Positions 8,172 to 33,811 of a stretch of DNA of 64,000 nt are shown in pieces. Each line of letters starts with the position of its first letter. The stretch's first letter is position 1. The translations under genes and the position numbers were made by a program. The DNA comes from Pollutimonas subterranea (GTDB taxonomy: Bacteria; Pseudomonadota; Gammaproteobacteria; Burkholderiales; Burkholderiaceae_B): assembly GCF_002849655.1 (NCBI RefSeq), contig NZ_PDNW01000002.1, forward strand, positions 186,001 to 250,000. Direction: 5' to 3'. The notes below the pieces were generated by a model. The model made no database searches, was not told the DNA's origin, and worked only from the letters and a program-made list of their open reading frames with translations.

Positions 8172-8696
8172 GTGACTTCCAACAATCCCTCCCTCGACTC
8201 TGCCAACACAACTGAAGATAGCCAGGTAATCCAAGCCGCCAAGCCTTCAGTTGACATGGAAGCGGCCAACGCCCAAGCCGAGAAGATCATAAAGAAACAG
8301 GTGAAGTGGGCTGCAGCGGCCGCCATTGTGCCGATCCCCCTCTTGGATCTGGCTGCGCTGGCCACTGTTCAAGTCAAAATGATCAAGAACATCGCCGAAT
8401 GTTATGGCTGCGAGGCCAAGGAAAGCTCGCTTAAGCCGCTGGTCGCTTCCCTGGCGGGTACGCTGGGCGCCGCTGGCCTCAGCGGTGGCTTGCTCGGCTC
8501 TTCGGCCAAAGTCGTACCGGTCGCAGGCACCATTCTGGGCAGCATCGGGTTTGCCGCTTTTGGTTCAGCGGCTACCTATGCGCTGGGGCGGGTATTCGCG
8601 TCGCACTTTGCCTCGGGCGGCACTCTTGCAGATTTCAATGCCAGCGCAGCCGGTAGTCGCCTGAAAGAAGAATTCCAGAAAGCACGCAGCGAATAA
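8172..8696 (+). CDS. DUF697 (YcjF-like) membrane protein
   Basis: The start is GTG at 8172, with CAGGAG eight bases upstream. The 174-residue product begins with a hydrophilic segment (1-50). It continues with the DUF697-type core: AAAAAIVPIPLLDLAALATVQVKMI, then glycine-rich hydrophobic stretches at about residues 90-145 (LAGTLGAAGLSGGLLG and AGTILGSIGFAAFGSAATYALG), and a charged tail. Proteins of this family are membrane-associated and poorly characterised; some relatives are fused to GTPases. It is the first gene of the operon that leads through an exporter into the NRPS genes, so a role in export or in protecting the producer's envelope is a reasonable guess, not a demonstrated one. Confidence 0.75.
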   Translation: MTSNNPSLDSANTTEDSQVIQAAKPSVDMEAANAQAEKIIKKQVKWAAAAAIVPIPLLDLAALATVQVKMIKNIAECYGCEAKESSLKPLVASLAGTLGAAGLSGGLLGSSAKVVPVAGTILGSIGFAAFGSAATYALGRVFASHFASGGTLADFNASAAGSRLKEEFQKARSE

Positions 8697-8700
8697 CGCC

Positions 8701-8868
8701 ATGTCGCCGATGTCCGTTCTTGCCTACGTACTTCTTTGTCTGGTCGTTGCCTTCATCGGGCGCAACAGTCGGGTACGCTTCGTCGGTGCTTTTGTGCTGT
8801 CGCTGCTGCTCACACCCGTCATCATGGGGCTGGTTTACCTTGTAGCCGAACCACGTAAAACACCGTGA
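8701..8868 (+). CDS. Small two-helix membrane protein (55 aa)
   Basis: An ATG at 8701, four bases after the previous stop, opens a 55-codon frame ending at TGA 8866-8868. The product has two hydrophobic segments (about residues 5-17, VLAYVLLCLVVAF, and 25-46, VGAFVLSLLLTPVIMGLVYLV) joined by a short basic loop (GRNSRVR) with a basic tail (EPRKTP). The reading frame fills the gap between the DUF697 gene and the exporter and has coding-like third positions. I do not recognise a family. Its place suggests an accessory subunit of the exporter or a partner of the DUF697 protein. Confidence 0.65.
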   Translation: MSPMSVLAYVLLCLVVAFIGRNSRVRFVGAFVLSLLLTPVIMGLVYLVAEPRKTP

Positions 8869-8901
8869 TTCCTTATCGCTCAACTGGGCCCCAAAATAAC
8901 C

Positions 8902-10620
8902 ATGGCTGAACCGATAGCACCCCGGAGCACTGGAGCATTTCTGCTCCGGCTGTTGGGTCGCTCAGATAACCAGGATGAACGAGCCCCTTTACCTTTTCTT
9001 GCGTTTCTGACCATGTGGGGGCAACAAGGCACCCGTGGCTTCCTGCTGGCCTACGCGGTGCTCTCGGCCGCGGCCGGCACGGGCATTCTTGTATTACTCA
9101 ACACAGAAGCCGAATTGCTCCAACGCCAAGGCTATTCCACATTGATCGCGGTGTTTTTCATCGTTCTGCTACTGGTATACCGATTTTCGCAACGCATGCT
9201 GGTGGCCAACGCAGCCGCCCAGATCGAACAGGAACTGCATGCACGTCGGCAAACCATCGTGCGCAAAACCCTGAATCTTTCGCTGCGCGACATTGAACAC
9301 CTTCGCGGCGAACGGGTCGTCAATGGGCTGGCGGCATCGTACGACTCATTGTCCCAGGCTATCGTGCCGCTGGTGGCTGGCCTGGAAGGCGTCGTCATGC
9401 TGGCGTTCATGTACGCCTACTTGCTCGTCCTGTCGCCCGCAGCGGGGGCGCTGACGGCAGTCGTAGCCGGACTCTCGGTGCTGGGCTACCTTAGCCTTAA
9501 TCGCCAGCTCGATCATACACTGCGCGAAACCGAAGAAAGCGGGCGGCGCTTCCGCAGCTATGCGGCCGCCTTGGTACAGGGCAACAAAGAGCTGCGCATG
9601 AACACACAACGGCGCGTCGAGCTTGAGCGCGACATGGCCGAAACATCTGCAAGCATGGCAGCAAGCAGGTCCAATAATGCTCACATCCTGGCCCAGATCC
9701 TTACCACCGGTACATCGGTGTCTTATTTACTGGCGGGCAGTGTCGTGTTCCTGCTGCCCATGCTCGCCGACATCCCCGGCGAAGATATATCCCGCATTGT
9801 CATGGCTGTGCTGTTCCTGATCGGGCCAGTAGGTTCTCTGGCCAACAGCGTCCAGCACTTCATCATCGCGCGCTTTGCACTGGACAATATCCAGCAGTTT
9901 GAACAGCGTATCGATGAGTGCGGCGCCCCCGCCCCGGATGCCACCGATCCGCCGCCGGCGGCTTTCGACGGACTGAAACTGAGCCGCGTTTGCTACCAGC
10001 ACCAGGCGGCTCAAACAGCGAACGCTGCGGGCTTTCGGGTCGACGACATCTGCCTTGAACTAAAGCCCGGTGAAGTCATCTTCATTACCGGGGGCAATGG
10101 GTCAGGAAAAACCACTGCACTACGGGTGCTTACCGGACTGTACCCGCGCGACGGCGGGACCATTACCGCGCGGGGCGTGCAAATACCCGCGCAAGCTCCT
10201 CAATGGTATTGCAATCTCTTTGCCGGTGTATTCGCCGATTACCACGTGTTTCCCCGCGCCTATGGCCTTGAAGCCTCCGGGCTGGCGGCGCTCGACCATT
10301 GGCTCAAGCGGCTGGGAATCCGCGACGAACTGGCCGACGACCTGAGCACGCTGCAGACCGAGGCGCTATCGACTGGCCAGAAGAAACGACTGGCCCTGGC
10401 TCTGGCTCTGGCCGAAGAACGTCCAGTGCTGGTGCTGGACGAGTGGGCTGCCGACCAGGATCCGGCCACACGCCTGGCCTTCTATACCGAAATCCTGCCC
10501 GAGCTCAAGCGCCAAGGCAAGGCCATTATCTGCATCACCCATGACGACCGCTATTTTGATTGCGCCGACCGACGCTTTCATATGTCTGAAGGAAGAATGA
10601 CCCCTGCGGACGCCTCATGA
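8902..10620 (+). CDS. Cyclic-peptide export ABC transporter, SyrD/PvdE type
   Basis: The 572-residue half-transporter has an N-terminal six-helix membrane domain (about residues 40-320) and a C-terminal ATPase. The ATPase motifs are Walker A TGGNGSGKTT near residue 398, signature LSTGQKKRLALALAL near 490, Walker B VLVLDEWAADQDP, and switch His in CITHDDRYF. The DEWAADQDP form and the TGQ-type signature are characteristic of the cyclic-peptide exporter family that includes SyrD and PvdE. Such proteins move nonribosomal peptides or their precursors across the inner membrane as dimers. It overlaps the next gene by four bases (ATGA), and three NRPS genes follow, so export of this operon's product is the likely role. 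Confidence 0.9.
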   Translation: MAEPIAPRSTGAFLLRLLGRSDNQDERAPLPFLAFLTMWGQQGTRGFLLAYAVLSAAAGTGILVLLNTEAELLQRQGYSTLIAVFFIVLLLVYRFSQRMLVANAAAQIEQELHARRQTIVRKTLNLSLRDIEHLRGERVVNGLAASYDSLSQAIVPLVAGLEGVVMLAFMYAYLLVLSPAAGALTAVVAGLSVLGYLSLNRQLDHTLRETEESGRRFRSYAAALVQGNKELRMNTQRRVELERDMAETSASMAASRSNNAHILAQILTTGTSVSYLLAGSVVFLLPMLADIPGEDISRIVMAVLFLIGPVGSLANSVQHFIIARFALDNIQQFEQRIDECGAPAPDATDPPPAAFDGLKLSRVCYQHQAAQTANAAGFRVDDICLELKPGEVIFITGGNGSGKTTALRVLTGLYPRDGGTITARGVQIPAQAPQWYCNLFAGVFADYHVFPRAYGLEASGLAALDHWLKRLGIRDELADDLSTLQTEALSTGQKKRLALALALAEERPVLVLDEWAADQDPATRLAFYTEILPELKRQGKAIICITHDDRYFDCADRRFHMSEGRMTPADAS

Positions 10621-11723
10621 ACTTAAAACTCCGACACAAATTGCGGCGCCTGACCTCCGCCCTGGTGTTCCTGCTGCTGATTTTCGTCTTCCTGATCATC
10701 GTGCTGTGGGACTCCGTCGTGCAAACCACGCCAGTAGGGCACACCAGCGTGCTATGGCACCGGTTTCCCATCAGCGATGAGCACTCGGTCGGGCCCCTGC
10801 GCGAAGGCGTGCACCTCATCCAGCCGTGGGATCAGTTCTATACCTATGACTTGCGGCTGCAGACCAGCGACCACGACTTTCAGGTCGTTTCCAAGGACGG
10901 TCTGCATTTCAATATTTCATTTACCATCCGCTGGCGGTTGTTGCGTGACAAGATCGTATTGCTGAACCAGACCCTGGGGCCCGCTTACGTCGAAAAACTG
11001 CTGGCTCCGAAAATCGGCTGGGCCGCCCGCCGCGTCGTGGCACTTTATTCCGCAGAAGCGCTCTTCACAGAAAAACGCAGCGAAGTCCAGGATGCCTTGT
11101 ATGAGCTGATCACCAGCGCATCGATTGAAAACGGCATTGCCCCTGAAGCGCCCGGCAGGCATGACCCGAACGACGTTCTGGAACTCACCGACGTACTTAT
11201 CCTCAGGGTCGAACTGCCGCCGCAAATCAGGCAGGCCATTGAAAACAAACTCGAACAGGGACAAATTGTTGAAGAATACCGCTTCATCGTCGAGCGTGAA
11301 GAACTCGAGTCTCAACGCAAAGCCATCGAAGCCGACGGAATCCGGAAGTTCCAGGAAACCATCGCACCCGCCATATCCGACAGCTATCTGAAGTGGCGCG
11401 GCATTGAAGCCAGCCTGGAACTGGCCAAGTCGCCCAACAGCAAAATTGTGATCTTCGGCAACAGCGAAAGCGGGCTGCCGGTCATTTTCGACGCCACTGA
11501 CAAGACCGCCCCTGCAGGCGGTCCGGCCGGCATCGACGACCCAGCATCTGCCGTCAGTACGGGCCCCGACAAAACTTCACCGAACAAAGCCGGAGTTCAA
11601 ACCCAGCAGCCGGCTTCAAGCAGCACGACACCAAACATGCCGCCTATTCCCGGCCCGATGCGGGGCTATAAAGACGATGGCCCTGGCCATCGCTACCCGG
11701 CGGCTCATTCGCAACAAAGGTAA
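10617..11723 (+). CDS. SPFH / band 7 (prohibitin-like) membrane protein
   Basis: This 368-residue protein has one N-terminal membrane helix (about residues 13-33, LTSALVFLLLIFVFLIIVLWD). A prohibitin/SPFH domain of about 200 residues follows (TPVGHTSVLWHRFP, REGVHLIQPWDQFYTYDLRLQT, and DGLHFNISFTIRWRL). A charged, probably coiled-coil region comes next (EEYRFIVEREELESQRKAIEADG). The last 70 residues are rich in Pro, Ser, Gly and Thr and probably disordered. SPFH proteins form ring-like membrane assemblies that organise membrane domains and regulate membrane proteins. It is translationally coupled to the exporter by an ATGA overlap, which is an unusual pairing for an NRPS locus. Confidence 0.85.
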   Translation: MNLKLRHKLRRLTSALVFLLLIFVFLIIVLWDSVVQTTPVGHTSVLWHRFPISDEHSVGPLREGVHLIQPWDQFYTYDLRLQTSDHDFQVVSKDGLHFNISFTIRWRLLRDKIVLLNQTLGPAYVEKLLAPKIGWAARRVVALYSAEALFTEKRSEVQDALYELITSASIENGIAPEAPGRHDPNDVLELTDVLILRVELPPQIRQAIENKLEQGQIVEEYRFIVEREELESQRKAIEADGIRKFQETIAPAISDSYLKWRGIEASLELAKSPNSKIVIFGNSESGLPVIFDATDKTAPAGGPAGIDDPASAVSTGPDKTSPNKAGVQTQQPASSSTTPNMPPIPGPMRGYKDDGPGHRYPAAHSQQR

Positions 11724-11728
11724 TTCCC

Positions 11729-14700
11729 ATGTTCAGCCCGAACACGTCTGCTGACAGGCCGGGAAGCGTCAATGCATCGCTATTGCAAGCACGGCTGGAA
11801 CAGCAGCCGGGCATCCATGCCGTCACTGCCGCCACCGTCAAAATCCATGGGCAAGACAAAACGGTTTTCTGGCTGAGCGGCCCAGGCAGCCTGGCCCTGA
11901 GCGCAAACCCGCCTCAATGGGTGGGTCCAGGCGTGCAATTGCTCGCCGTCACACAGGCTCCAACGCCTCATGAAACCGCCACTCTTCCCGTCTGGACGCC
12001 TGCGGCGCTCGAACACGCCGAGGCCACCGTACGGCGGGAAACCAGCGATCCCACTGCTCGGCTGGTCATGCAGTCTCCAATAGGCAGCCTTGTCGCAATA
12101 CCCGGCCATGACAGCCCCGCCGATACCGCGGCGAGCGACTCCACCAAGCCGTTGCCATCAATAATCGGCCGCTCGCGCGGCAAGATTCCGGCATTGAGCG
12201 ACGGCGGTCCGCAGCATTGGCCGGAGGGCTTTCCCCGCGATTGCGTAGAAGCCTTGACGCGTGCCGCCACTTCGGACGCGCAAGCGGTCATTTACCAGCC
12301 CGACGGGCAAATCACCCGTATCCCTTACGCCGCCCTGCAGCACGAAGCGCTGCGCGTACTGGCCGGACTGCAGCAATCGGGCCTGAAGGCCGGCGACACG
12401 CTCCTGGTCGCCTCCAACAAGGCCGACGTCCTTTTGACGGGTTTATGGGCTTCGATTCTGGGAGGCATATACGCGAGCGCCATCGAATTGCCGGATCCCC
12501 AGGCGGATTCTGCCGCGTATCACCGTCTGGAAGCCGTCTGTGCAGTACTGAACAATGCTCCCCTATTGCTCGATGCCCAAGCGGCGGCACAGCGGGCGCA
12601 TCTGCCCGCAATCCAGGTCCGCCGCCTGCTAACGCTCGAAGCGCTGCGACAGGCACCGGCCGCCCAGGCTCGCGTCCATTGTGCCGACCCGCATGACACC
12701 GCGCTCATCATCCTCACTTCGGGCAGCACCGGCGTGCCCAAAGGCGTCATGCAAAGCCATCGCGCGATCCTGGGCATGGTGGCGGGCGTGCTGCAACAAA
12801 ACTGCCAAGCCGGACCCGATGACGTCATGTTGAACTGGATGCCACGCGATCATGTCGGCGCCATGGTGTTCGTCTTTCTGGCTGCAGCCATCTTGCGGGT
12901 CAGGCAGGTTCACGCCGACACCGCTTATGTGCTGGGGCAGCCCGAACGCTGGCTGCAACTGATCAACGACGAAAAAATCAGCATTACCTGGTCTCCCAAT
13001 TTCGTTTACGAACTGCTGGCCCGCGCCGCCCGGGCCACAAAGATCCGCTACGACCTGACCAGCCTGCGTCGCATCTTCAATGGGGGTGAGGCCGTCAATG
13101 AACAGGCCTTGCTGTCCAGTCTTCACGATCTGGAGCGGCACGGGCTTGACCCTGCCGCAATGATTCCTTCGTTCGGTATGTCGGAAACCTGCTCTGCCAT
13201 CACCATGGGCCAATTGGGCAATACCATCGGTGCTTTCACCAGCATGGGACCTCCCGTACCAGGCTGCCGGATTCGCATTACCAACGACCATAACCAGCCC
13301 CTCACCGAAGGTGAACTGGGCAATATACAGATCGAATCGTCCCAACTGCTGACGCGCTACTTCGGGCTGCCTGAAAGCTTGTCCCGTATTGAAAATTCAT
13401 CGTGGTTTGATACCGGCGACATCGGCTTCCTGGCAAATAGCGAGCTGTACCTCACAGGGCGAATCAAGGACACGCTCAATGTGCGGGGCGTCACGCTGTT
13501 TGCCCATGAGCTTGAAAACTCCCTGATCAGAATCCCGGGTATCGATCCAGTATGCCTCGCGGTAACCCCTGTCCAGCCCGCAGGCTCGTCTACCGAACAG
13601 ATCGCCGTTTTCTTTTCAACCTACCCCGAGACCGGCGTGTGCAACGTACCGGCCCTGTCGGCTGTCCTTGCCTCTGTGCATGAGATCCTGCGCTCGGCCC
13701 ATGCCGTGGCGACCCACTACGTGATTCCGCTGGCGCCCTGCGAATTTCCAAGAACACCCATCGGGAAAATCATCAAGAAAGAGTTGCGCCAGCGCCTGGA
13801 AAGCGGGCACTATGACGCAGCGCTTCAACGCGCCCGACGGCTAACCGCGCCTGCTGCACATCAGGCTGCGCTTCACCGACGCCGCTGGGTGAAGCTGCCC
13901 ACTCCCACGGTACCGGGCGCTGTCCCCGCAGCAAACACACGCATTTTGGTCATGACCGCCGATTCGGGCGTTAACGATGTGCTGGAAACGCTGCAATCCA
14001 ACCCCGAACGCCAGACGCTGCTGCTTGATATCCGCCCCCTGCTTGCCTCCGGCACAGGTGCTTCAGGCCTGGCCTACAACCTTTTGCAGGACATCAATCG
14101 GGCTGTGGTTGCGCAACCGTCTATCAGTGCGCCGATCCAGGTGCTCGCCCACTCTTGCCTGCACCTTGGCCCTGAAGACCTCCTGGACCTGGAAGCCGCC
14201 ATGCTGCCCGGACTGATCCACAGCTTCAACTTGGCCGCGTCGGACTGGCGCTGGGCTCTGGTGGACCTTCGGCCGAACGCACCGGGTTCCGCGGCCATAG
14301 CCTTGCAAGGCAGCGGCTATGCCCCGATTGTCGCCCTGCGCCAGAACGTCTTCCTGATCGAGCACTTTGATACCGTCGACCCCGACACCAGTTCTTTCAA
14401 GCCGGCACCAGGGCTTTGGCTGCTTATCGGCGGCCTGGGTGGCGTGGGGGATCAATGTGCCCAGGCGCTACAGGAACTGGGCGCCGGTCTGCTGATCTGC
14501 GGGTCCACACCGCAAGACGCACTGCCCGATTCCAAGCGGCAAAGGTTAGCGTCGCAGGCCGCACATGGCCCGGTTCGCTATGTCGCCGCCGCCGACATCG
14601 AAAGCCTGTTGTCTGAAGTGGCTGCAGCAGAGCAAGCCATGGCCATGCCGCTGCGCGGGGTCATACATTCGGCGGGGCTTGATCTGGGTGGTCACGAACG

Positions 14701-15547
14701 CTGGGAAGACGACGCATTTCAGCGCAGCCTCGCCGTCGCGCACGGACGTTTGGCACAGTTGGACACGCTATTGCGCGCACGCCCAGGTACGCAGTGTGTC
14801 GTGATTGCATCGATCACGGGAATGGCCGGCGGCCGGCTGGGCAGTTACGCGGCACAACAGTCCGCCCTGATCTCGCTGACGCAACGCTTGCCTGCAGTCA
14901 GCATGCCAACCGTTCTGGCCTTTTCTGCCTGGAACAATATCGGCCTGAGCCACAATCGCACGAGTCCCTCACTGCTTGCCAACGACGGTCTGCTTGTCAT
15001 CAGCCCGGCAATAGGGCGCCGCGTTTTGACATGGGCCCTGCATCATCCGGGCGGCGTATTCAGTATCGGTCTGAATGATCGTCATCCGCTCCATGCCTGG
15101 CGTGTGCCTCAAGCATTGACGCCGCTTCTTGAACCGGCCATTCATGCTCTGCGCGGTGGCGCCATTTGCGCGCCGGACGGACAAGGCCACCTGCACTGGC
15201 TGCCCATTCTGCACGCGTCAACAGCAAGCGCCGGCCTTGATCCGGCCGCAACGTGCATCGCCGGTTTCATTGCCCTGGCGCTGGATCAAGCCACCATCGA
15301 TGTCCATGACGATTTCTTCCTGATTGGTGGCGATTCGATCAGCGCGAGCCGTCTGGCCGCGCAGCTTTCAGAGTGGTTCTTCACCGATGTGCCGGCAGCA
15401 GCCGTTTTTCAGCACCCGACCGCCAATGGGCTGGCCGGCTATCTGCGTATTCAGGTTGACGAGCCCGAACTGTTTGCGACGGTCATTGCCCACTTGGATC
15501 AAATGCTTGACGGCGCCAACGCTGGCGTCGGAGCCCTTGACTCATGA
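11729..15547 (+). CDS. Loading enzyme: acyl-ligase (AL), ketoreductase-like and carrier domains
   Basis: This 1272-residue protein starts the assembly line. An N-terminal extension (1-150) precedes an acyl-AMP ligase of the AL/FAAL-like type: TSGSTGVPKGV near 328, NWMPRDHVG near 370 (a hallmark of PKS loading ligases), GMSETCSA near 485, TGRIKDTLNVRG near 575, and catalytic Lys in TPIGK near 675. Next come a KR structural half (about 700-885) and a KR catalytic half with intact GGLGGVG near 900, Ser in IASITG and Tyr in SYAAQQS near 1038. The expected catalytic Lys is not visible, and the usual Asn is Gln. A carrier domain follows with GGDS, its Ser near 1200. The protein should activate an acid and pass it to the next enzyme's condensation domain. 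It overlaps that gene by ATGA. Confidence 0.85.
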   Translation: MFSPNTSADRPGSVNASLLQARLEQQPGIHAVTAATVKIHGQDKTVFWLSGPGSLALSANPPQWVGPGVQLLAVTQAPTPHETATLPVWTPAALEHAEATVRRETSDPTARLVMQSPIGSLVAIPGHDSPADTAASDSTKPLPSIIGRSRGKIPALSDGGPQHWPEGFPRDCVEALTRAATSDAQAVIYQPDGQITRIPYAALQHEALRVLAGLQQSGLKAGDTLLVASNKADVLLTGLWASILGGIYASAIELPDPQADSAAYHRLEAVCAVLNNAPLLLDAQAAAQRAHLPAIQVRRLLTLEALRQAPAAQARVHCADPHDTALIILTSGSTGVPKGVMQSHRAILGMVAGVLQQNCQAGPDDVMLNWMPRDHVGAMVFVFLAAAILRVRQVHADTAYVLGQPERWLQLINDEKISITWSPNFVYELLARAARATKIRYDLTSLRRIFNGGEAVNEQALLSSLHDLERHGLDPAAMIPSFGMSETCSAITMGQLGNTIGAFTSMGPPVPGCRIRITNDHNQPLTEGELGNIQIESSQLLTRYFGLPESLSRIENSSWFDTGDIGFLANSELYLTGRIKDTLNVRGVTLFAHELENSLIRIPGIDPVCLAVTPVQPAGSSTEQIAVFFSTYPETGVCNVPALSAVLASVHEILRSAHAVATHYVIPLAPCEFPRTPIGKIIKKELRQRLESGHYDAALQRARRLTAPAAHQAALHRRRWVKLPTPTVPGAVPAANTRILVMTADSGVNDVLETLQSNPERQTLLLDIRPLLASGTGASGLAYNLLQDINRAVVAQPSISAPIQVLAHSCLHLGPEDLLDLEAAMLPGLIHSFNLAASDWRWALVDLRPNAPGSAAIALQGSGYAPIVALRQNVFLIEHFDTVDPDTSSFKPAPGLWLLIGGLGGVGDQCAQALQELGAGLLICGSTPQDALPDSKRQRLASQAAHGPVRYVAAADIESLLSEVAAAEQAMAMPLRGVIHSAGLDLGGHERWEDDAFQRSLAVAHGRLAQLDTLLRARPGTQCVVIASITGMAGGRLGSYAAQQSALISLTQRLPAVSMPTVLAFSAWNNIGLSHNRTSPSLLANDGLLVISPAIGRRVLTWALHHPGGVFSIGLNDRHPLHAWRVPQALTPLLEPAIHALRGGAICAPDGQGHLHWLPILHASTASAGLDPAATCIAGFIALALDQATIDVHDDFFLIGGDSISASRLAAQLSEWFFTDVPAAAVFQHPTANGLAGYLRIQVDEPELFATVIAHLDQMLDGANAGVGALDS

Positions 15548-24800: not shown

Positions 24801-27800
24801 TCGGTCCAGAGGACAATTTTTTTGACCTGGGCGGCGACTCGATCAGCAGCCTGCAGGTAATCTCGCGCGCGCGCCGCGCGGGCGTTGACCTGTCTGCCAA
24901 GACCGTCTTTGAATATCAGACGGTGCGCGCTATTGCGCAACAGACGACTGAAACCGCCAAAGCCTCGCACGATGCGCAGAGTTGCGGGTCTGTGTGGGCC
25001 ACGCCCATTCTTTCGTGGTTCAAGTCGGAAATGAAAGGGGCATGGCGTCAGTTCAACCAGGCTGTTGTCATTGCTCTGCCCGACCCAGTTGACCTGCCCC
25101 GGCTTCAGCAAGCACTGAGCGCCGTCGTTCACTGCCACGAAATTTTCGGCCTCCATGTCGCGACGGCGCCTGATGGTGAGGTGAGCTACCACATCCCGAC
25201 CACTCGGCCAGCCCCTCTGTTCAGCGTGGTGACACGACCTGACGATGTGGCCGACTCAGCCTGGGCCACCCTGCGGCAGAGGCATCTGGCTGAGGCACAA
25301 GGCCGGCTTGATCCGTCCACCGGCATTAATGTTTCGGCCGTGGCCCTGCCCGCCGATAAACAATTAATGTTGACGGTTCATCACTTGTGCATCGATGTCC
25401 TGTCGTGGCAGGTCGTGCTGCGCGACCTGCAGAACGCTTATGAGGCTGCGGACCGGCTGGATGCGTCACCGCTGCGTCGCCACGGTTCACCATGGCGGCG
25501 CTGGGCTTTGGCTCTACAAGACTTCAGCCTCGACCCCGATGTACGCGCGTCGCTGCCCTTTTGGATAAAAAGCCTGTCGGCCCGCCCGACCCCACTGGCC
25601 CCGGGTCTGCCCGCCAAGCCCGGCATCGAAGCGGACGCCCGAGTTCATCAACTGGCCCTCAGCACCGAACTGACGCAACATCTGCTGCGCAAGGTTCCTG
25701 CCGTGTGGGGGCTGCGCATGGACGAAACGCTGCTGACAGCCCTTGCTCTGGCCCATGCGGCAGACGAGAGCGTAGTCTTGCGCGTGGATCTCGAACGCAA
25801 TGGTCGCGCCTCCCCCCTGGATGACCTGGATATTTCCGAAACTGTCGGCTGGTTCACCTCGGTCATTCCATTAAGTCTGCAGACAGGTCGGAATGCTCAG
25901 ACCATGGCCCAAGCCGTTAAAGCGAGACTGGCAGACGTCCCACACGAAGGTCTTAGTTATGGCTTGTTGCGCTACGGGAATAACCCCGAAACAGTCCGCC
26001 TGCTAGCTGGCTTGCCTGAAGCCGATGCTCTGTTGAATTACGTCGGCATTCTCGACGGCTGGGCCCAGGGTCCGTTCCAGCCAGTTGATGCCGACACGGG
26101 CCCGACCATCGCCCCGGATCTCGCGCGGAGCCACCGCATTGAGCTTAATGCGGGCGTTGTCGCCGGCCAGTTGCGCGTGGCACTGAATTACGCCGATGGG
26201 CACGGCAGCAAGCAAGCCGCAGCCTCACTGATGGCCAACATCGAAAGAGCGCTGAACCGGATTGCCGCCGAGACCGGTTACCAGCGCAGCGTTGGCGGCC
26301 AGGCCGACGTCGCTAACAATGAAGTCCGTGCCGCGGGGGCCTTGCCCCATATCCCGGTCACCCCCCTGCAGCGCGGGATTTTGCTGCACAGCCTGCATGA
26401 ACCGCAAACGTATTTCGACCAGCTTCATTTCAGGCTTGACGGGCCCCTGAACCTCGATGCGCTGAAAACCGCTTGGGCTTTGCTACTGGATCGCCACGGA
26501 GCCCTGCGATGCGCCTTCGGATTCGATGACAACGATGAACCGTGCCAATACATCGAATCCGGTCTCGCGCTGTCGTGGCAGCTCTATGATTGGACGACGC
26601 TGGATGAACCCGAGTCGCGCCGAGAACTACAAACGCTGATGCAAGCCGACCGCCAGAAAGGCTTCGTGCTGGACCAGGCGCCGTTGATGCGCATGCATTT
26701 GATCAAACAAGCGCAAGATCGGCATGATTGGATCTGGAGCAGTCACCACCTGATACTCGATGGCTGGTCTGTATCCATTTTGATGCAGGACTGCCTGAGC
26801 GCGTATACCGCCAGCCTCGAGGGCACCGTACCCGACTGGCCCAGCCCACCCGACTGGCACGCCTTTGTTCACCGCTGGCATCGCCTTAATGCGGCGGGTG
26901 CATTACTGTGGTGGAAACAGGCGCTGGCCAATGTTGCCCCAACGCTGATGGCTCAACGCGATACCGTTGGCCTTGCCCCACCCGCGCAGAGAGCGCTGCA
27001 CGACGCCGGGATTGCACTGGATCCGGCCATACGCGACGCCCTGGCCTCCGTGTGTCGTCGACATGGCGTGCCGCTGGGCGTATTGATTCAGGCGTCATGG
27101 GCCATGCTGCTGCGCCGATACCGGTCTATCGACACGGTGGTCTTCGGGATCACACTCGCCCACCGCCCACCCGAGTTCAACAACGCTGACGCCTTGGTCG
27201 GCATGACCATCAATACCGTGCCGGTCATCGCCGACATACAGCCGGATATGCCGCTTTCTACTCTGCTGGCCAACCTACGGCAACAGTCGTTCGAACGGAC
27301 TGACCACGCCTTCGTGGGACTTGAAGAAATCCTGCAAACGGCGCGGCACGACCCGGCCTGCCCCCTCTTTGACACCTTGCTGCTGGTACAGAACTACCCG
27401 CGCCCCACAACCCTGGCGGCAAGCGATCTGACCATTCAGGTATGCGACGTGCGGGAGCAAACCAACTTCGCCCTCACCGCCATCGTCACGACGGGTGAGG
27501 ACGCCGCGATGAGTCTAGCCTGGGACAGCACACGTATTTCCGACGCGCTGGGGCGCGATGTACTGAACCACTGGCATCAGCTTCTGCGGGCCATGACACA
27601 TGATGCGCCGTCACTCGTACGCGACTTGTCTATCTATACCGATATCGCGCTGAACAAGCGGATTGCGTTGGCCACGGGTCCTGACAGCGAGCTATCGGCA
27701 CCGGACGTGTTGGAACGATTCGATCAATGGGTGGATGCCACTCCCGAACATCCCGCGGTTCAGGCCCTGGAAGGCTGCTTCAGCTATCGAGCTCTGTCGT

Positions 27801-30800
27801 GTGCCGCTGATCAACTGTGCCAGGCGCTGCGCGACTCAGGCGTAGTCACGGGCGAACCCGTTGCCATTCTTTTGCCGCGCGGCGCCCGCGCCATCGCGGC
27901 TTTGCTCGGTGTCATGAAATCAGGGGCGATGGCTGTCCCCATCGATGCCGCCTACCCCGCCGAGCGCATTGCTTTCATGCTGCAAGACAGTCAGGCCAGA
28001 TGGCTGCTCACCGAATCGGCCCTTACGGATCGCCTACCGTCACCCCTCCCTATCAGAGCCTTATTTATTGACCAGATGCCCGATACGACTCAGCCTGTCG
28101 TTACGCATCGGCCCGAAATTTCCCCCACAAGCCCGGCCTATCTGATCTACACATCAGGCTCGACCGGCCAGCCCAAGGGGGCGATCACGCACCATGGCGG
28201 GCTGGCCAACATGATGCGCATCCAGCAATACCATCTGTGCCCAAAGGCGACAGACCGAGTGCTGCAATTCGCCGCCTTGTCCTTTGACGCGTCCATTTGG
28301 GAAATCTTCATGGCCCTAGGGTCAGGCGCCACCTTGCACGTCCCAGACCCGGTTGCGGTCCGGTTTGGTGAAGAATTGCTCGACACCATCGAGCACGAAC
28401 GCATCACAATAGCTACCTTGCCGCCGTCCCTGATGGCCACGCTGCCCCCACGGGCCTTGCCGTCGCTGCGCATACTGATGGTAGCGGGCGAAGCCTGCCC
28501 CGATGTCGTGGTGGAAAAATGGGCGGACGGTCGGCGACTGTTCAACTGTTACGGGCCCAGCGAAACCTCGGTATGTTCCAGCCTCCATGAAGTCACGGGC
28601 CGAACCTTGCACATTCCCATCGGCAAACCGGCGGCTCATACGCGGGCCTACGTCATTGACCCGGACGGCCAACTGGTCCCTCCAGGCGGCGAAGGCGAGC
28701 TGCTCATTGGCGGAGACGGGGTCGGGCTGGGCTATCTGCATCGAGCCGAGCTGACGGCTGAACGCTTCAAACCGGATTCCTGGAGCACTGAACCCGGCAA
28801 TCGGGTCTATCACTCCGGCGACCGGGTGCATGTCGGGCACAACGGCGAGCTCACTTTTTACGGCCGTATCGACCGGCAATTGAAAGTACGTGGCTTTCGT
28901 GTCGAGCCCGGCGAAATCGAACGCCAGCTGGAACAACTTGGTCCTATCGACAAAGCCCTGGTCGGACTGTCGCCCCGTGTCGACGCCGAGCCGGTCCTGC
29001 TGGCCTGGGTACTTCCCCGGGCGGGTCTAACCATCGATACGCAACGACTGCGCGACGACTTGTCCAGACGTCTGCCTTCTCACCTGGTGCCCGCTGTCAT
29101 CCAGGCCCTGCAGCAGATACCGCTCACACCCAACGGCAAAATCGACTGGGCAGCACTGCCGATGCCCGCTGATGGTGCCTACGCAATTGAAGCCCCGGTT
29201 CAAACGGACAGCACAGACCGGGCCAGAACGATTGCCCAAAAATTGGAGTCCATCTGGGCCGAACTGCTGAAACTGCCCAGAGTCGACTGGCACGGTAACT
29301 TTTTTGATCTGGGAGGACAGTCGCTATTGCTGGTCAAAATGCAGCCCATGCTGCGCAATACCTTCAACATCAAAGTGCCCACCCGCATTCTGTTTGAACA
29401 TGTCACGATATACGCGCTAGCCCAGTGGCTGGCCACGCAACAGACAGCAGAGCCCGGCGTGCCCGAAGTCGACTCCGACTCCATCGCCATCGTCGGCATG
29501 GCCTGTCGTCTTCCTGGTGCCGATTCCGCCGAGGCTTTCTGGACTCTGCTGCGCGAAGGCCGCGAAGGCATCACCGAGTTCGAATCCGATCTGTCTGGCG
29601 ATACCTTGCAAGCCGGTCAAAGCCACTTTGTGCCGCGATGCGGCGTCATCCCCGACAGCGACCAGTTCGACGCCGCCTTTTTTGGCATTGGGGCTCGCGA
29701 TGCGCTCCTGCTTGACCCGCAGCACCGGCTATTTCTGGAAGGCGCCTGGAATGCCTTTGAAGACGCCGCTGAAATTCCTGGCGGCAACATTGGCGTATTC
29801 GCCGGCTGCAGTCACAATACCTGGTTGCGCGAAGTCCTGGTGCCAGGCGGCGAAACCCTCGGTGGCCCGGCGGGTTTTCATGCCATTACCGCCAATGACA
29901 AAGACTTCCTGGCAACACAGGTCGCCTACCGCCTGAACCTCAGCGGCCCCGCGGTCACCGTCCAATCGGCGTGCTCCACCTCCTTGGTCGCGGTCGCCCA
30001 AGCGGTCGATGCCTTGCGTGCCGGGCGCTGCGACATGGCGCTGGCCGGCGGTGTCTCGTTGAGTTTCCCCGACCCGTCCGGCTACGTTTACGAACCCGGA
30101 ATGATCCTCTCGCCCGATGGCCATTGTCGTTCCTTTTCAGCCGATGCTGCGGGCACGGTTCCCGCAGCGGGGATGGGTGTGGTGCTGCTCAAGCCGCTTG
30201 AGAAAGCACTGGAGGACGGAAATCGCATTTACGCCACCATACGGGGCGTTGGCGTCAGTAATGACGGCGCTCGCAAGATGAGTTTTGCCGCGCCCGGCAT
30301 TGAAGGCCAGGCCAAAGCCATTCAGCAAGCCCTTTCGGATGCCGGGTTGCGCAGCGACGAAGTTGACCTGGTCGAAGCGCATGGCACAGGCACTGCGCTG
30401 GGCGATCCAGTGGAGATCACCGCCCTTGGCAAGGCTTATGCCAAAGGACGCAGCCGTCCCTTGCTGATTGGTTCCGTCAAGAGCAATATCGGGCATGCCG
30501 ACGCCGCTGCCGGCATTGCCGGGCTGATCAAAGCTACTCTAAGCCTGCACCATCAGTTCCTTCCCGCCAGCCTGCACGCAGACCGATTAAATCCTAAGCT
30601 GGATCCCGGGCCACAGCCTTGGTTCGAGATCGCCCGCGTAGGCTCGACACTATCGCCCCCCGGGCGCCCACTGCGCGCGGGGGTCAGCTCGTTCGGCATC
30701 GGGGGCACCAACGCCCACGTCCTGCTCGAGCAAGCCCCTTGCCGGCAGGCAATACAGACTGTGAACGACAACTGGCAAGTCGTCCCGGTATCGGCGTCGG

Positions 30801-33800
30801 TCCCCGGTCAGCTGGCGGTTGTCCTCAAGAAGCTTGAAGACCATTTGCGGCATTCACCCACACCGCTTGCTTTAGCCGACATCGCCACCACGCTGCAGCA
30901 AGGCCGTACGGCAATGAAGGCGCGTATAGCGCTTATCGCCGATAAGACAAGCGGTCTGATCCAGCTATTGCCCGGGACTGTTACGGATACCGTAACCTTA
31001 GGCTCAGGCACTACACGCCGCCCACCGAAGATTGCTTTGCTATTGCCGGGCCAGGGGGTTCAGCATCCGGGTATGGGGGCTGCGCTATCGGCCCAATACC
31101 CAGCCTTCAGGGAACATCTGGCAGCCCTGTCCGACCTGCTGCGCCCGTTGTTGAACCTCTCGTTGATCGATACACTCAATGATTCCGCCCTCGATTCCGG
31201 ATTCTGGCAAGACACCCGCGTAGCACAACCCGCCATCCTGGCCATCAGTCTGGCCTGCGCCCAGTGGTGGGCATCGCTGGGTATCAAGGCCGACCTCATG
31301 TTAGGCCACTCGCTGGGCGAATACACTGCCGCTTGTCTGGCGGGCGTATTTTCGCCGGAGGACGCATTGAGCATCGTGGCCGAGCGTGCTCGCCTGATGG
31401 CAGCCATGCCCCACGGAGCCATGCTCGCCATCACGCAAGAGGGACCCGCTATGGAGGCCCTGCTCTTACGCCACCCGGCACTTGATCTGGCAGCCATCAA
31501 CGGCCCGCGTCAGGCGATCATATCAGGCCCCGTTGACGCCATCGATACGCTTGCAGCCGAGCTGGCCCAACAGCTGCTGCCCGCGCAACGGCTTTGCACC
31601 TCGCACGCATTCCACTCGCGATCCATGCAACCTGCAGCCGATGCTCTGCGCGCCTTTCTGAGCACCCGGGTCCTGAATCCACCCACCGGCAAATTCGTGT
31701 CCAACCTGACCGGAACCTGGATCACACCGGAACAAGCCGTATCGCCCGACTATTGGGCCGAACACATGCTGGCGCCCGTGCGCTTTGCGCAGGGCTTGCA
31801 AACACTGCAGGACAAAGGCGCCGGTCTTGCGATTGAAGCGGGTCCGGGCAGGGTCCTGACCATGCTGGCACGCAGCAAGGGCTTGCCCGCCTGCCCCAGC
31901 CTGGATGCCGCCTCGCGGTCCGGGACAAGTTCGGCGCCAGAGCATGCGCCCGCCCACATCCAAAGCGTTGCGCAGCTTTGGGAAAGCGGTATTGAAGTGG
32001 ATTGGAGCGCGTTCAATACCCAGCCTGGAAAGCGTATTGCCCTGCCCGGCTATTCGTGGGCGCGCCAAGTATTCCGGCCAAAGGCGGTATCAATACCGGC
32101 GGCACCGGATACGGAGGCAACACCGCCCAAAGAAAAACCATCGCCTGACCACTGGTTTTACACGCCGCTCTGGGTTCGCCGATCACCGGTAACCTGCGCG
32201 GACGCCTCGGGTCCTTTGTTGATTTACAGCTCGGCAATGGCACTTGCCAACCCGGTAGCGCAAGTCCTCAGGCAATCAGGACGCGAGGTCAGAGTAGCGA
32301 CATCAGCCGAGGCCTTGCTGGCCGTGCCCGGCGAAGCGCGCACGCAGCTTGTTGTACTGATGCCCCCTGCAGGCGGACAGTCGGCACTGGCCATCATGAC
32401 GCAGTTGCGCACTACGCTGCTGACCGTACGCGACGCCATCCTGGCTTGCCACCCCAAGCCGATGCGCATCGACCTGGTCACGATGAGCGGCGCTGCCGTA
32501 CAGGGCAGCGAGCCCCTGTGCCCGGCGAATACGGCGCTGATCGCCGGGTTCAGAGTGTTGGCCCATGAGTTCCCGGAACACCTGTTCGCCGGACTGGACC
32601 TGGTCTCGCCCGATCCCGTTCTGGTGGCCCGGCAGATGCAGGAATGGCTGAACACTGAAAGAACGGGGCAGTTCCTGGCCTACCGCCAAGGCCAATACTG
32701 GAACGAAGAAGTGGCGCGCTGCCACATGCCCCCGGCACAGCCCTGGCCCTTGCGGGCTGGAGGAACTGTCCTGATCACGGGAGCTGCGGGCGGGGTCGGC
32801 CAGGCTTTTGCTCTGGACCTTGCTCGCCACGCCGACACACCGCATTTGCTGCTCGCAACCCATCGCACGCCCCTGCCTGACATGCTTTGCCGGCAATTAC
32901 AGGCGCTGGGCGCGAAGATCAGCCAGCTGACGCTCGAGCTGGCCGACGAGCAGTCCACTACCGATACCCTGACGAACTGGCAAAACGCCTTCGGCCCGAT
33001 CAACGGAGTCATACACGCGGCCGGGCTGGCCGACTATGGCGGCGTCATGGCTCGTCGCAGTGCCGGCTCGATTGACAGCGTACTGGCGCCGAAAATCATT
33101 GGACTGCACGGCATTGAAAGCGCCCTGACGGGTCTGCCCCTGGACTTCATGGTGCTGTGCTCGACATTGGGGTCCTTTCTTCCCGCCGCCAAATTTGGTC
33201 AAGTGGCATACAGTGCTGCCAACGCGTATCTGGACACGGCGGCTGCCGCACTAGTGCAACGCCATCCCTGGCGTGCCGTCACCATAAACTGGGATGATTG
33301 GGTGGAGGTCGGCATGACAGTCGCCGCCCGTCAGCGGGCAGGGTTGCAGGCCTTGAGTGCGGAGTCCGGCCTTTTGCATGATGAAGGCCCCGCCGCCGTC
33401 CGACGCGTCTTGCCCACCCCGCTCACCCGCGTAGCCATTGCAGTCAATGATCTGACGGCGCTCGTTGCCCGCAGCGGCACATGGTTTTCAGACGAACTCG
33501 CCGGACCCAACATTGACAGCACCGACCGGCCTGTTTCAAGCGTGACAGCTCCAGTCGCGCAAGCTCTTGCCGGCCCTGCCGATCTTTGCCCCGTTCTGGA
33601 GGACCTATTCTGCGAAGTACTGAACGAACCTGTTTGCGGGCCCCATGGCAATTTTTTCGATCTGGGCGGACACTCCCTGCTGGCCATGCAACTGATTAGC
33701 CGGGTCAAAGAGACAACCGGCCTGGATGCAACACTGATCGACTTGTTCGCCTCGCCCACGCCCGATGCGCTGGCGCAATTGCTGGTCACCAAAGCGCCCG

Positions 33801-33811
33801 AGACGCCCTAA
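21863..33811 (+). CDS. Hybrid NRPS-PKS: C-A-PCP-E-C-A-PCP-KS-AT-KR-ACP
   Basis: About 3982 residues from ATG 21863, which overlaps the previous stop (ATGCGTAA); ATG 21884 is the alternative. Module 3: C (HHLIADR near 142), A (FTSGTTGTPK near 607, code DVENLTAISK), carrier GGDS near 990, and epimerase (HHLCIDV near 1173, TVGWFTSVIPL). Module 4: C (HHLILDGW near 1628), A (YTSGSTGQPKG near 2097, code DAWTMACVCK, close to Phe codes) and carrier GGQS near 2485. The PKS module has KS with ACSTS near 2703, EAHGTGT and SNIGHADAA; malonyl-type AT with GHSLGEY near 3148 and HAFH near 3248; KR with TGAAGGVG near 3640 and Lys (APKIIG), Ser and YSAAN all present; and ACP GGHS near 3935. The chain ends just after the ACP without a thioesterase or reductase. 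Confidence 0.93.
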   Translation: MRNQRLIMQKPSSSTFLERLAHDKAGLPSTVRLPLNAEQTRLWFIDKLSQNSQGFVLQASFLLRGAVDPTVWQKAVRLTVERHAILSARLVEHDNKAWLELADTSSELEMCEADTPRALPPGTLFRAMLQPRAEHYQLTFLIHHLIADRSSMAILINDCFTSVRGIGLPSAAQFTERLLARQAEPANAPEALEWWRAALEGAPAELALPFDHPRPPERGRRGATISLPLTEDADLTALSKSLGATPFMTYLALYVQLLQRWSGEEDLVIGCPVSIRKTREDQQMVGFLVNTLPLRLKPGLNDDLATRVSQVKQTLLNTLGQPAVTLDQIVSTLNPRRHLNRNALFQAMFVLQAQPLAMPTLPDIDIEALSTAPLAPEVDLNLSVERTTDPQTPYVAHLEYDPELFHAETALEFLQQFIALCRAAAQPQGAAQKPSASHQLACWKGPRLALPPHTVDTLILETLNGLAPERPMLQDAGQTLSCKELLWNIAHTSDALEAAGVAPYTRVSLCLPRLTELVPALLAVWRLGACAVFLPTDGPHDVIAERATLAGANIVLIGTDSPDLAGLAADSCKVLTWDALRHAHSSGVHARTDMGAFKEEPAYACFTSGTTGTPKAVFISHASLLNHALDCSRRFELDATDRVLQFAAPAFDVLLEEVIPALLSGSSLVQLATGYTGDLEAFHQALEDKRITVANLPAAFWHTWVHELIAAGTPVPTTLRLLITGSEAVQAAAARIWRTHAAHCRLLCAYGLTETTISAGFMQVDDVPGHWSTMPLAEAVQNTELAVVGPDNQPLPALCLGEIRVRGQALMLSSTGEVHPISGRAPITELHTGDYGRMDLNGRLWCLGRRDRQIKIRGIRVEPATLEHALTRISGISEAAALAIPVGQRHSLWAFVTGHAAPAAAAIKAALQNRLPDVLMPEQIIALPSLPRTAQGKTDYKALAARAAQQPRPPSDTRLNSGRERLIAQLFSEVLQRSPVGPEDNFFDLGGDSISSLQVISRARRAGVDLSAKTVFEYQTVRAIAQQTTETAKASHDAQSCGSVWATPILSWFKSEMKGAWRQFNQAVVIALPDPVDLPRLQQALSAVVHCHEIFGLHVATAPDGEVSYHIPTTRPAPLFSVVTRPDDVADSAWATLRQRHLAEAQGRLDPSTGINVSAVALPADKQLMLTVHHLCIDVLSWQVVLRDLQNAYEAADRLDASPLRRHGSPWRRWALALQDFSLDPDVRASLPFWIKSLSARPTPLAPGLPAKPGIEADARVHQLALSTELTQHLLRKVPAVWGLRMDETLLTALALAHAADESVVLRVDLERNGRASPLDDLDISETVGWFTSVIPLSLQTGRNAQTMAQAVKARLADVPHEGLSYGLLRYGNNPETVRLLAGLPEADALLNYVGILDGWAQGPFQPVDADTGPTIAPDLARSHRIELNAGVVAGQLRVALNYADGHGSKQAAASLMANIERALNRIAAETGYQRSVGGQADVANNEVRAAGALPHIPVTPLQRGILLHSLHEPQTYFDQLHFRLDGPLNLDALKTAWALLLDRHGALRCAFGFDDNDEPCQYIESGLALSWQLYDWTTLDEPESRRELQTLMQADRQKGFVLDQAPLMRMHLIKQAQDRHDWIWSSHHLILDGWSVSILMQDCLSAYTASLEGTVPDWPSPPDWHAFVHRWHRLNAAGALLWWKQALANVAPTLMAQRDTVGLAPPAQRALHDAGIALDPAIRDALASVCRRHGVPLGVLIQASWAMLLRRYRSIDTVVFGITLAHRPPEFNNADALVGMTINTVPVIADIQPDMPLSTLLANLRQQSFERTDHAFVGLEEILQTARHDPACPLFDTLLLVQNYPRPTTLAASDLTIQVCDVREQTNFALTAIVTTGEDAAMSLAWDSTRISDALGRDVLNHWHQLLRAMTHDAPSLVRDLSIYTDIALNKRIALATGPDSELSAPDVLERFDQWVDATPEHPAVQALEGCFSYRALSCAADQLCQALRDSGVVTGEPVAILLPRGARAIAALLGVMKSGAMAVPIDAAYPAERIAFMLQDSQARWLLTESALTDRLPSPLPIRALFIDQMPDTTQPVVTHRPEISPTSPAYLIYTSGSTGQPKGAITHHGGLANMMRIQQYHLCPKATDRVLQFAALSFDASIWEIFMALGSGATLHVPDPVAVRFGEELLDTIEHERITIATLPPSLMATLPPRALPSLRILMVAGEACPDVVVEKWADGRRLFNCYGPSETSVCSSLHEVTGRTLHIPIGKPAAHTRAYVIDPDGQLVPPGGEGELLIGGDGVGLGYLHRAELTAERFKPDSWSTEPGNRVYHSGDRVHVGHNGELTFYGRIDRQLKVRGFRVEPGEIERQLEQLGPIDKALVGLSPRVDAEPVLLAWVLPRAGLTIDTQRLRDDLSRRLPSHLVPAVIQALQQIPLTPNGKIDWAALPMPADGAYAIEAPVQTDSTDRARTIAQKLESIWAELLKLPRVDWHGNFFDLGGQSLLLVKMQPMLRNTFNIKVPTRILFEHVTIYALAQWLATQQTAEPGVPEVDSDSIAIVGMACRLPGADSAEAFWTLLREGREGITEFESDLSGDTLQAGQSHFVPRCGVIPDSDQFDAAFFGIGARDALLLDPQHRLFLEGAWNAFEDAAEIPGGNIGVFAGCSHNTWLREVLVPGGETLGGPAGFHAITANDKDFLATQVAYRLNLSGPAVTVQSACSTSLVAVAQAVDALRAGRCDMALAGGVSLSFPDPSGYVYEPGMILSPDGHCRSFSADAAGTVPAAGMGVVLLKPLEKALEDGNRIYATIRGVGVSNDGARKMSFAAPGIEGQAKAIQQALSDAGLRSDEVDLVEAHGTGTALGDPVEITALGKAYAKGRSRPLLIGSVKSNIGHADAAAGIAGLIKATLSLHHQFLPASLHADRLNPKLDPGPQPWFEIARVGSTLSPPGRPLRAGVSSFGIGGTNAHVLLEQAPCRQAIQTVNDNWQVVPVSASVPGQLAVVLKKLEDHLRHSPTPLALADIATTLQQGRTAMKARIALIADKTSGLIQLLPGTVTDTVTLGSGTTRRPPKIALLLPGQGVQHPGMGAALSAQYPAFREHLAALSDLLRPLLNLSLIDTLNDSALDSGFWQDTRVAQPAILAISLACAQWWASLGIKADLMLGHSLGEYTAACLAGVFSPEDALSIVAERARLMAAMPHGAMLAITQEGPAMEALLLRHPALDLAAINGPRQAIISGPVDAIDTLAAELAQQLLPAQRLCTSHAFHSRSMQPAADALRAFLSTRVLNPPTGKFVSNLTGTWITPEQAVSPDYWAEHMLAPVRFAQGLQTLQDKGAGLAIEAGPGRVLTMLARSKGLPACPSLDAASRSGTSSAPEHAPAHIQSVAQLWESGIEVDWSAFNTQPGKRIALPGYSWARQVFRPKAVSIPAAPDTEATPPKEKPSPDHWFYTPLWVRRSPVTCADASGPLLIYSSAMALANPVAQVLRQSGREVRVATSAEALLAVPGEARTQLVVLMPPAGGQSALAIMTQLRTTLLTVRDAILACHPKPMRIDLVTMSGAAVQGSEPLCPANTALIAGFRVLAHEFPEHLFAGLDLVSPDPVLVARQMQEWLNTERTGQFLAYRQGQYWNEEVARCHMPPAQPWPLRAGGTVLITGAAGGVGQAFALDLARHADTPHLLLATHRTPLPDMLCRQLQALGAKISQLTLELADEQSTTDTLTNWQNAFGPINGVIHAAGLADYGGVMARRSAGSIDSVLAPKIIGLHGIESALTGLPLDFMVLCSTLGSFLPAAKFGQVAYSAANAYLDTAAAALVQRHPWRAVTINWDDWVEVGMTVAARQRAGLQALSAESGLLHDEGPAAVRRVLPTPLTRVAIAVNDLTALVARSGTWFSDELAGPNIDSTDRPVSSVTAPVAQALAGPADLCPVLEDLFCEVLNEPVCGPHGNFFDLGGHSLLAMQLISRVKETTGLDATLIDLFASPTPDALAQLLVTKAPETP

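What the first reader, a model, noticed from the sequence alone, without database searches (positions are those of the whole stretch)
8172..33811. A 25.6 kb operon for an unrecognised acylated NRPS-PKS product
Seven co-directional genes run with gaps of 4-33 bases or overlaps (ATGA at 10617 and 15544, ATGCGTAA at 21863). The line reads AL-KR-ACP / C-A-PCP-C-A-PCP / C-A-PCP-E-C-A-PCP-KS-AT-KR-ACP. By collinearity the product would be an acyl group, a beta-alanine-like unit, an unassigned residue, a D-configured basic residue and a Phe-like residue extended by one reduced malonate. I do not recognise a known compound with this order. Domain order is read from motifs; the residue identities are inference.
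Basis: partly seen in the sequence, partly recalled or inferred. Interest (0 to 1): 0.88.

Follow-up and report, generated by a model that had tools for sequence, protein, structure and literature searches.

The report
Peptide assembly operon with export cassette
This bacterium carries a probably acquired seven-gene operon for an unknown acylated peptide, and four of its genes form an unstudied membrane export set that recurs beside unrelated peptide and polyketide pathways, among them that of the anticancer compound didemnin.

Summary
In detail: seven co-directional genes (8172-33811) with the stated gaps and overlaps, the seventh a 55-aa ORF at 8701-8868, and the domain order as read.

The line is not unique. 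An uncultured Tateyamaria has it domain for domain at 35-41% identity; a rearranged line lies in G155. All three share four A-code classes in order: beta-Ala-like, unassigned, Orn-like with E, Phe-like. No TE is encoded. The loading KR lacks its lysine in the window and Tateyamaria, and the loading domain resembles McyG more than fatty-acyl ligases.

At least two partners occur at 43 of 80 Band7 loci, 24 of these with NRPS/PKS within 10 kb against 2 of the other 37; it also lies beside the didemnin genes. One paper found notes the ABC-prohibitin pair; none found gives its function.

The parts
8172..8696 (+). DUF697 membrane-type protein, 174 aa; cassette gene 1
   Evidence: Pfam DUF697 66.9 bits; AlphaFold2 five helices, pLDDT 84.8; no PDB fold match at E<=0.001
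8701..8868 (+). 55-aa two-helix membrane protein; cassette gene 2
   Evidence: two hydrophobic stretches; helical hairpin, pLDDT 74.1; no Pfam or NCBIfam family at E<=0.01
8902..10620 (+). ABC exporter of the cyclic-peptide type; cassette gene 3
   Evidence: TIGR01194 288.7 bits against a cut-off of 286.2
10617..11723 (+). prohibitin-like SPFH (Band 7) protein with one N-terminal TM stretch; cassette gene 4
   Evidence: Pfam Band_7 79.5 bits; profile matches prohibitins first; hydropathy
11729..15547 (+). loading protein AL-KR-ACP, 1272 aa; KR lacks catalytic Lys
15544..21870 (+). NRPS C-A-T-C-A-T, 2108 aa; A codes VDAVASIAD and DVSQAGVVT
21863..33811 (+). NRPS-PKS C-A-T-E-C-A-T-KS-AT-KR-ACP, 3982 aa; A codes DVENIGAIS and DAWTMACVC; no TE
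33821..34609 (-). 4'-phosphopantetheinyl transferase, convergent with the operon
   Evidence: Pfam ACPS 40.5 bits; a homologous gene lies by the G155 cassette, and a PPTase-like ORF, judged by eye only, by the Tateyamaria one
34925..35017 (-). tRNA-Ser(GCT) at the right border of the variable region
   Evidence: homology to the four same-genus genomes starts at 34913-34925

Best explanation
It is a probably horizontally acquired, single-operon biosynthesis-and-export unit for an N-acylated peptide with a polyketide extension. Shown by sequence: seven genes in one operon, a loading protein, two NRPS(-PKS) proteins, an ABC exporter with an SPFH, a DUF697 and a 55-aa partner, and a PPTase next door. 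Inferred: the PPTase arms the carriers; the loading domain activates a carboxylic acid (McyG/A-KR type) and puts it on its ACP; beta-alanine (or a close beta-amino acid), an unassigned residue, an ornithine-like residue turned to D, and phenylalanine are added; one malonate (AT motif HAFH, meaning recalled) with ketoreduction makes a statine-like beta-hydroxy-gamma-amino acid end; an unidentified activity releases the chain; and the four membrane proteins export it, the prohibitin-like protein most likely forming a cage or scaffold round the exporter. Same-kind lines exist in a Rhodobacterales bacterium and in a second bacterium of the window's order.
For: Operon and domains. Collinear Tateyamaria cluster, 34.7/35.0/41.1% identity over the three proteins, 20 of 20 domains in order. 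A-code classes conserved in three lines. Exporter class. SPFH = prohibitin-like. Cassette order DUF697-small-ABC-Band7 on one strand at 28 of 80 Band7 loci, Band7 alone at 33 of 80. NRPS/PKS within 10 kb at 24 of 43 loci with 2 or more partners against 2 of 37 others. Beside didemnin genes. All three non-own genomes of the order sample with the Band7 at E<=1e-25 have it beside NRPS/PKS. Acquisition: the 4 same-genus genomes hold only partial matches to the loading protein (best ones of each 26-31% identity); in G003 window 7838-34924 is replaced by 5.9 kb with an integrase-like ORF beside tRNA-Ser; the Band7 tree nests the window in a mainly alphaproteobacterial group, 100/99. Hydroxamate siderophore disfavoured.
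Against: No TE or other release domain; Tateyamaria's best TE-family match is 39.7 bits, so release is unexplained in both. Export is inferred from family membership, and the exporter passes its cut-off by only 2.5 bits. At nine loci (L038-L046) the cassette sits with IcmF-, DotU- and NAD_binding_4-type genes and no NRPS/PKS within 10 kb, so peptide export cannot be its only role. 19 of 43 cassette loci show no C/E/KS within 10 kb, though some contigs are short. The cassette label is clustered on the Band7 tree but is not one clade: 7 changes. Substrate names rest on codes whose assignments (beta-Ala, Orn) I recall. Protein order in the line is assumed.
Confidence: 0.6

Rival explanations
1. 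An ordinary orphan NRPS-PKS lipopeptide cluster with an ordinary exporter; the SPFH, DUF697 and 55-aa genes are passengers that act elsewhere in envelope stress.
For: NRPS-PKS clusters with exporters are common (general knowledge); at L038-L046 the cassette has other neighbours.
Against: The four genes keep one order and strand at 28 of 80 loci from several bacterial families and are operonic here.
Confidence: 0.22
2. A siderophore line: Orn-like code read as N5-hydroxyornithine and a PvdE-like exporter.
For: Code DMENIGGIT in Tateyamaria resembles the hydroxyornithine code (recalled); exporter class TIGR01194.
Against: No strong Lys/Orn N-monooxygenase in the window's genome (best 52.1 bits, partial) or Tateyamaria (26.3), against 423.5 in G155; no TonB receptor among the 20 neighbour proteins scanned.
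Confidence: 0.07
3. The proteins do not act in gene order: 21863-33811 precedes 15544-21870, giving acyl-D-Orn-Phe-ketide-beta-Ala-X.
For: Both NRPS proteins start with C and end with a carrier; neither has a TE. In G155 the ketide module sits after the second residue instead.
Against: The order of the four code classes along the genes is the same in three lines, and in G155 the beta-Ala and second modules follow the loading gene and are fused to the PKS module.
Confidence: 0.15
4. An A-KR-type line whose starter is an alpha-hydroxy acid made from an alpha-keto acid by the loading KR.
For: Architecture matches the 6ulw A-KR module; G155's loading KR keeps S, Y and K.
Against: The window and Tateyamaria loading KRs lack the Lys.
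Confidence: 0.25

Closest known systems
Uncultured Tateyamaria cluster (NZ_CANLAG010000005.1, L032/L115-L117); no description found
   Same: all seven genes, 20 of 20 domains, A-code classes
   Different: 35-41% identity in the line; adds a CmlA-type diiron beta-hydroxylase that the window's genome lacks
   Same: loading protein, four A-code classes, cassette, PPTase
   Different: PKS module after residue 2, second E and a last C domain; TE-family gene and CmlA-type gene in the cluster
Didemnin (did) cluster, Tistrella mobilis pTM3
   Same: the same four-gene cassette 4.8-9 kb from the first NRPS gene; an A domain 33% like the window's loading domain; a KS right after an Ile-type module
   Different: much longer line (11 NRPS and 2 PKS modules, PMC10811503 introduction); cassette diverges from the NRPS genes
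McyG loading module; 6ulw A-KR module (StsA, name recalled); AerA (recalled)
   Same: non-amino-acid A domain; in 6ulw A, KR and carrier in that order
   Different: loading KR lacks Lys
TIGR01194 exporters (SyrD/PvdE kind, recalled)
   Same: fused permease-ATPase over the cut-off
   Different: linked to SPFH, DUF697 and 55-aa partners
CesCD-CesAB of cereulide (PMC7527721)
   Same: ABC transporter tied to an NRPS line: a precedent for tethering
   Different: two-gene transporter; the terms prohibitin, flotillin and SPFH do not occur in the text

Membership tests
Collinear NRPS-PKS assembly line | intact modules with conserved catalytic motifs | tested here: met
   Pfam; HHxxxD in all 5 C/E domains; KS, AT and carrier motifs read by eye from the translations
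Collinear NRPS-PKS assembly line | terminal release domain | tested here: not met
   no TE match in Pfam; last protein ends with the ACP and has no GxSxG in its last 350 aa
Canonical fatty acyl-AMP ligase (FAAL) | reaches a FAAL family score | tested here: not met
   NF006624 201.5 bits, cut-off 600; solved FAALs 122.7 bits or less against McyG 332.4
A-KR keto-acid module | A then KR then carrier | tested here: met
A-KR keto-acid module | KR with S, Y, K, N | tested here: not met
   K replaced and N to Q in the window; K replaced, N kept in Tateyamaria
TIGR01194 cyclic peptide exporter | score over the curated cut-off | tested here: met
   288.7 against 286.2; the related multidrug model NF007813 gives 292.6 but its cut-off is 604
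Prohibitin/SPFH | Band_7 domain after an N-terminal TM stretch | tested here: met
Prohibitin/SPFH | ring or cage assembly | not testable with these tools
   no complex prediction on hand; the Band7 protein was not modelled
Hydroxamate siderophore cluster | Orn/Lys N-monooxygenase | tested here: not met
   best match in the genome 52.1 bits, partial, on another contig; formally over the 21.3-bit cut-off, which 12 of 14 control genomes also pass
Known MIBiG cluster | near-identical characterised cluster | not testable with these tools
   no MIBiG; in the plasmids collection the 12 rows listed for the loading protein have at most 33.1% identity
Anti-phage defence system | cassette proteins in PADLOC | tested here: not met
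   Band7, DUF697 and 55-aa: 0 families; the ABC protein matches 5 models, by its ATPase part

The most novel reading that the evidence does not exclude
DUF697, the 55-aa protein, the exporter and the prohibitin-like protein form one membrane machine: an SPFH cage that encloses the exporter, docks the assembly line at the membrane and hands hydrophobic peptide or polyketide products straight to export. It would be a transferable export module shared by many proteobacterial pathways, didemnin included, that I found described nowhere as a unit.
Probability: 0.3. Interest if true: 0.8.

Novelty: new variant of a known kind. Interest (0 to 1): 0.6.

Why it matters
How large nonribosomal products leave Gram-negative cells is often unclear. 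A conserved four-gene set with a prohibitin-like protein gives a definite object to delete, tag and image, also in the didemnin producer, where knock-outs and secretion imaging are already published (PMC10811503). It is also a search handle for unknown pathways: in the order sample it picked out three non-own genomes, all with NRPS/PKS beside it. The three related lines give a testable product hypothesis.

Tried and rejected
Seven genes looked like six until the 55-aa ORF was found. The Tateyamaria 'MBL' gene was first taken for a release enzyme; Pfam makes it CmlA-like (CmlA_N 238.1 bits), so that idea was dropped. Att repeats between 34851-35030 and 7001-8300: no shared 11-mer in either direction. 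A 9-position code for the loading domain was computed but the GrsA alignment is unreliable there and is not used. PDB fold search with the DUF697 model: no match at E<=0.001. RNA families in 7500-35300: only the tRNA. Promoter scan of 7700-8300: 0 sites. Band7 DNA in E. coli genomes: no match. Papers: DUF697 + Band 7 + nonribosomal 0; SPFH + NRPS + gene cluster 0; A-code strings 0; led to PMC12016528, which notes an ABC exporter and a prohibitin gene beside one Thalassobaculum cluster (one section read); for I saw the listings of at most 15 papers each, which showed nothing else on the cassette. Passages of PMC9964501, PMC12186527 and PMC12305651 were read and are not used. The cassette counts have no correction for kinship, and 10-kb flanks and short contigs undercount neighbours.
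Full report
OBSERVATION. The window lies at G000:C22:186001-250000 of a 4.54-Mb genome. Genes 8172-8696, 8701-8868, 8902-10620, 10617-11723, 11729-15547, 15544-21870 and 21863-33811 are all on + with gaps of 4, 33, -4, 5, -4 and -8 bases. Pfam confirms AL-KR-ACP, C-A-T-C-A-T and C-A-T-E-C-A-T-KS-AT-KR-ACP; the E call rests on TIGR01720 at 72.7 bits, just under its 74.2 cut-off, found in that segment and not in two C segments. A convergent PPTase follows at 33821-34609. No TE is encoded.

A FAMILY OF LINES. The 4 same-genus genomes hold only partial matches to the loading protein (best ones 26-31% identity); 4 of the other 398 order genomes match it at E<=1e-60. One of these, G155, has a loading AL-KR-ACP gene, NRPS/PKS genes, a PPTase, and DUF697, ABC and Band7 genes and the small ORF. 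A scan of named genomes with a Band7 alignment brought in an uncultured Tateyamaria (Rhodobacterales) whose cluster matches the window in all 20 domains tested, at 34.7, 35.0 and 41.1% identity over the three proteins. Nine-position A codes, read on a GrsA stretch checked against 1amu, are for window / Tateyamaria / G155: VDAVASIAD / VDTVVSLGD / VDWVTSLAD; DVSQAGVVT / DVSQAGAVT / DVSQVGAVT; DVENIGAIS / DMENIGGIT / DVENVGGIS; DAWTMACVC / DAWTVAAVC / DAWTVAAVA; GrsA (Phe) gives DAWTIAAIC. From memory, VDWVISLAD is the bleomycin beta-Ala code and D-x-ENxG is typical of ornithine or hydroxyornithine; no paper in the library holds the strings searched. The second code is unassigned. In G155 the KS-AT-KR-ACP module follows the second residue rather than the fourth, so lines of one family have moved their ketide module.

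STARTER, RELEASE, TAILORING. The loading domain matches McyG best (4r0m; whole-chain 332.4 bits), then 6ulw (295.3), with solved fatty-acyl ligases at 122.7 or less. Its KR keeps Ser and Tyr but has lost the Lys that 6ulw, G155 and the extension KR keep; Tateyamaria has lost it too. I therefore read the starter as a directly loaded carboxylic acid and the KR as a relic; this is inference. Release is open: at E<=0.001 the window's genome has TE-family matches only at C55 (two) and C68 (one, under the cut-off); C55 also holds a second NRPS locus. Tateyamaria's only Condensation matches, 5 of 5, are in this cluster and its best TE-family match is 39.7 bits; G155 has a TE-family gene in the cluster, 124.7 bits. 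Tateyamaria and G155 carry a CmlA-type beta-hydroxylase that the window's genome lacks, so their products may bear one more hydroxyl.

THE CASSETTE. Within 6 kb, 28 of 80 show exactly DUF697-small-ABC-Band7 on one strand and 33 Band7 alone. C, E or KS domains lie within the 10-kb flanks at 24 of 43 loci with at least two partners and 2 of 37 of the rest; those two are L092, which has the small ORF, and L097 (Fisher p 8e-7; kinship not corrected). In a Band7 tree of these loci and the window, the cassette label needs 7 changes against 27 for shuffled labels, so it is clustered but not one clade; one fork of 41 rows (98/90) holds 38 of the 44 cassette rows, window included, and 3 others. Order sample: 4 of 399 genomes have the Band7 at E<=1e-25, own included, and the three others all have NRPS/PKS beside it. 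Phylum sample: 14 of 397 genomes at E<=1e-30; of the 13 places outside the own genome and G155, 7 show C/E/KS in the stretch fetched; 3 of the other 6 lie on contigs under 15 kb, and not all 13 have every partner. Plasmids: 19 records; all 5 that I opened have NRPS or PKS domains in the stretch, but in Caballeronia only the small ORF lies close to the Band7.

DIDEMNIN. On Tistrella mobilis pTM3 the four genes lie at L121 10976-15139 (-), 4.8 kb before an NRPS gene with two codes DAWQFGLID (Gln, recalled), followed by genes with Pro-, Leu-, Thr- and Ile-type codes (recalled) and a KS. That is the didemnin order; the naming rests on this and on the published account of DidA as a bimodular NRPS that activates Gln (PMC10811503; abstract, introduction, first part of the results, section 2.4 and one passage read). 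That paper lists eight transporters and eight hypothetical proteins among 19 flanking ORFs in strain L17 and reports knock-outs of didA, didJ and didK in what I read; I saw no test of the cassette genes.

HOW IT PROBABLY WORKS. The exporter belongs to the cyclic-peptide class. The Band7 profile matches prohibitins first, then HflC and erlins; such proteins form rings or cages (known biology, not tested). DUF697 is predicted as five helices, the 55-aa protein as a helical hairpin; the latter has no Pfam or NCBIfam family at E<=0.01. The simplest mechanism is a scaffolded exporter. Tethering of the line is the bolder version; CesCD tethers the cereulide NRPS to the membrane (PMC7527721, passages read). 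Against a purely peptide role: nine loci (L038-L046, eight Azospirillum and one Roseomonas) carry the cassette beside mechanosensitive-channel, DotU-, IcmF- and NAD_binding_4-type genes, eight of them with a SET gene too, and no C/E/KS within 10 kb.

ACQUISITION. In G003 (same genus, 89% DNA identity in both flanks) homology stops at window 7837 and resumes at 34925, the edge of tRNA-Ser; 5.9 kb with an integrase-like ORF sits there instead (the integrase call is read by eye from the translation). GC is 61.2% inside against 58.2 and 58.6% outside. No att repeat was found. The Band7 tree puts the window with Tateyamaria (100/93), Puniceibacterium and an unclassified proteobacterial MAG (98/85) and Aquibium (100/99); G155 and G299, of the window's own order, are not in that tree but match the window's Band7 at 39 and 38% only, against 63% for Tateyamaria. 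Transfer is well supported; its direction and mechanism are not shown.

VERDICT. The export cassette, seen through this operon, is the part a specialist would want to test. The single mention I found in print is of an ABC exporter and a prohibitin gene next to one Thalassobaculum cluster (PMC12016528, one section read).

Noticed in passing
window 34925-35017; G003:C22:178400-189300 (L132): tRNA-Ser(GCT) borders a variable region in this genus; G003 has an integrase-like ORF, an ATPase-like ORF and others at the site (judged by eye).
   Followed up: partly
L038-L046: A version of the cassette with a second ABC gene lies beside mechanosensitive-channel, DotU-like, IcmF-related, NAD_binding_4 and SET genes, without C/E/KS domains within 10 kb.
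   Followed up: partly
L116/L118; L022/L119; L085: CmlA-type diiron beta-hydroxylase genes near the cassette in Tateyamaria, G155 and an Opitutaceae MAG; no match in the window's genome.
   Followed up: partly
G000:C55:141046-167452: A second NRPS locus in the window's genome, with a TE-family match inside an NRPS frame and another in a 288-aa frame.
   Followed up: no
L058, L062, L064, L066, L067, L073, L074: Seven Pseudoalteromonas loci have a C-A-T NRPS end about 3-4 kb before the cassette; product not identified.
   Followed up: no
L088 and G208:C24: G208 contig C24 has the length and coordinates of JAOTRT010000010.1, Candidatus Nitricoxidireducens bremensis, so the window shares that organism's order in the scheme used.
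   Followed up: partly
window 4756-7804: PuuR-like regulator, FAD-dependent oxidoreductase and 2-hydroxyacid dehydrogenase genes upstream; window 4766-7837 is present at 89% DNA identity in G003, so not part of the acquired region.
   Followed up: yes
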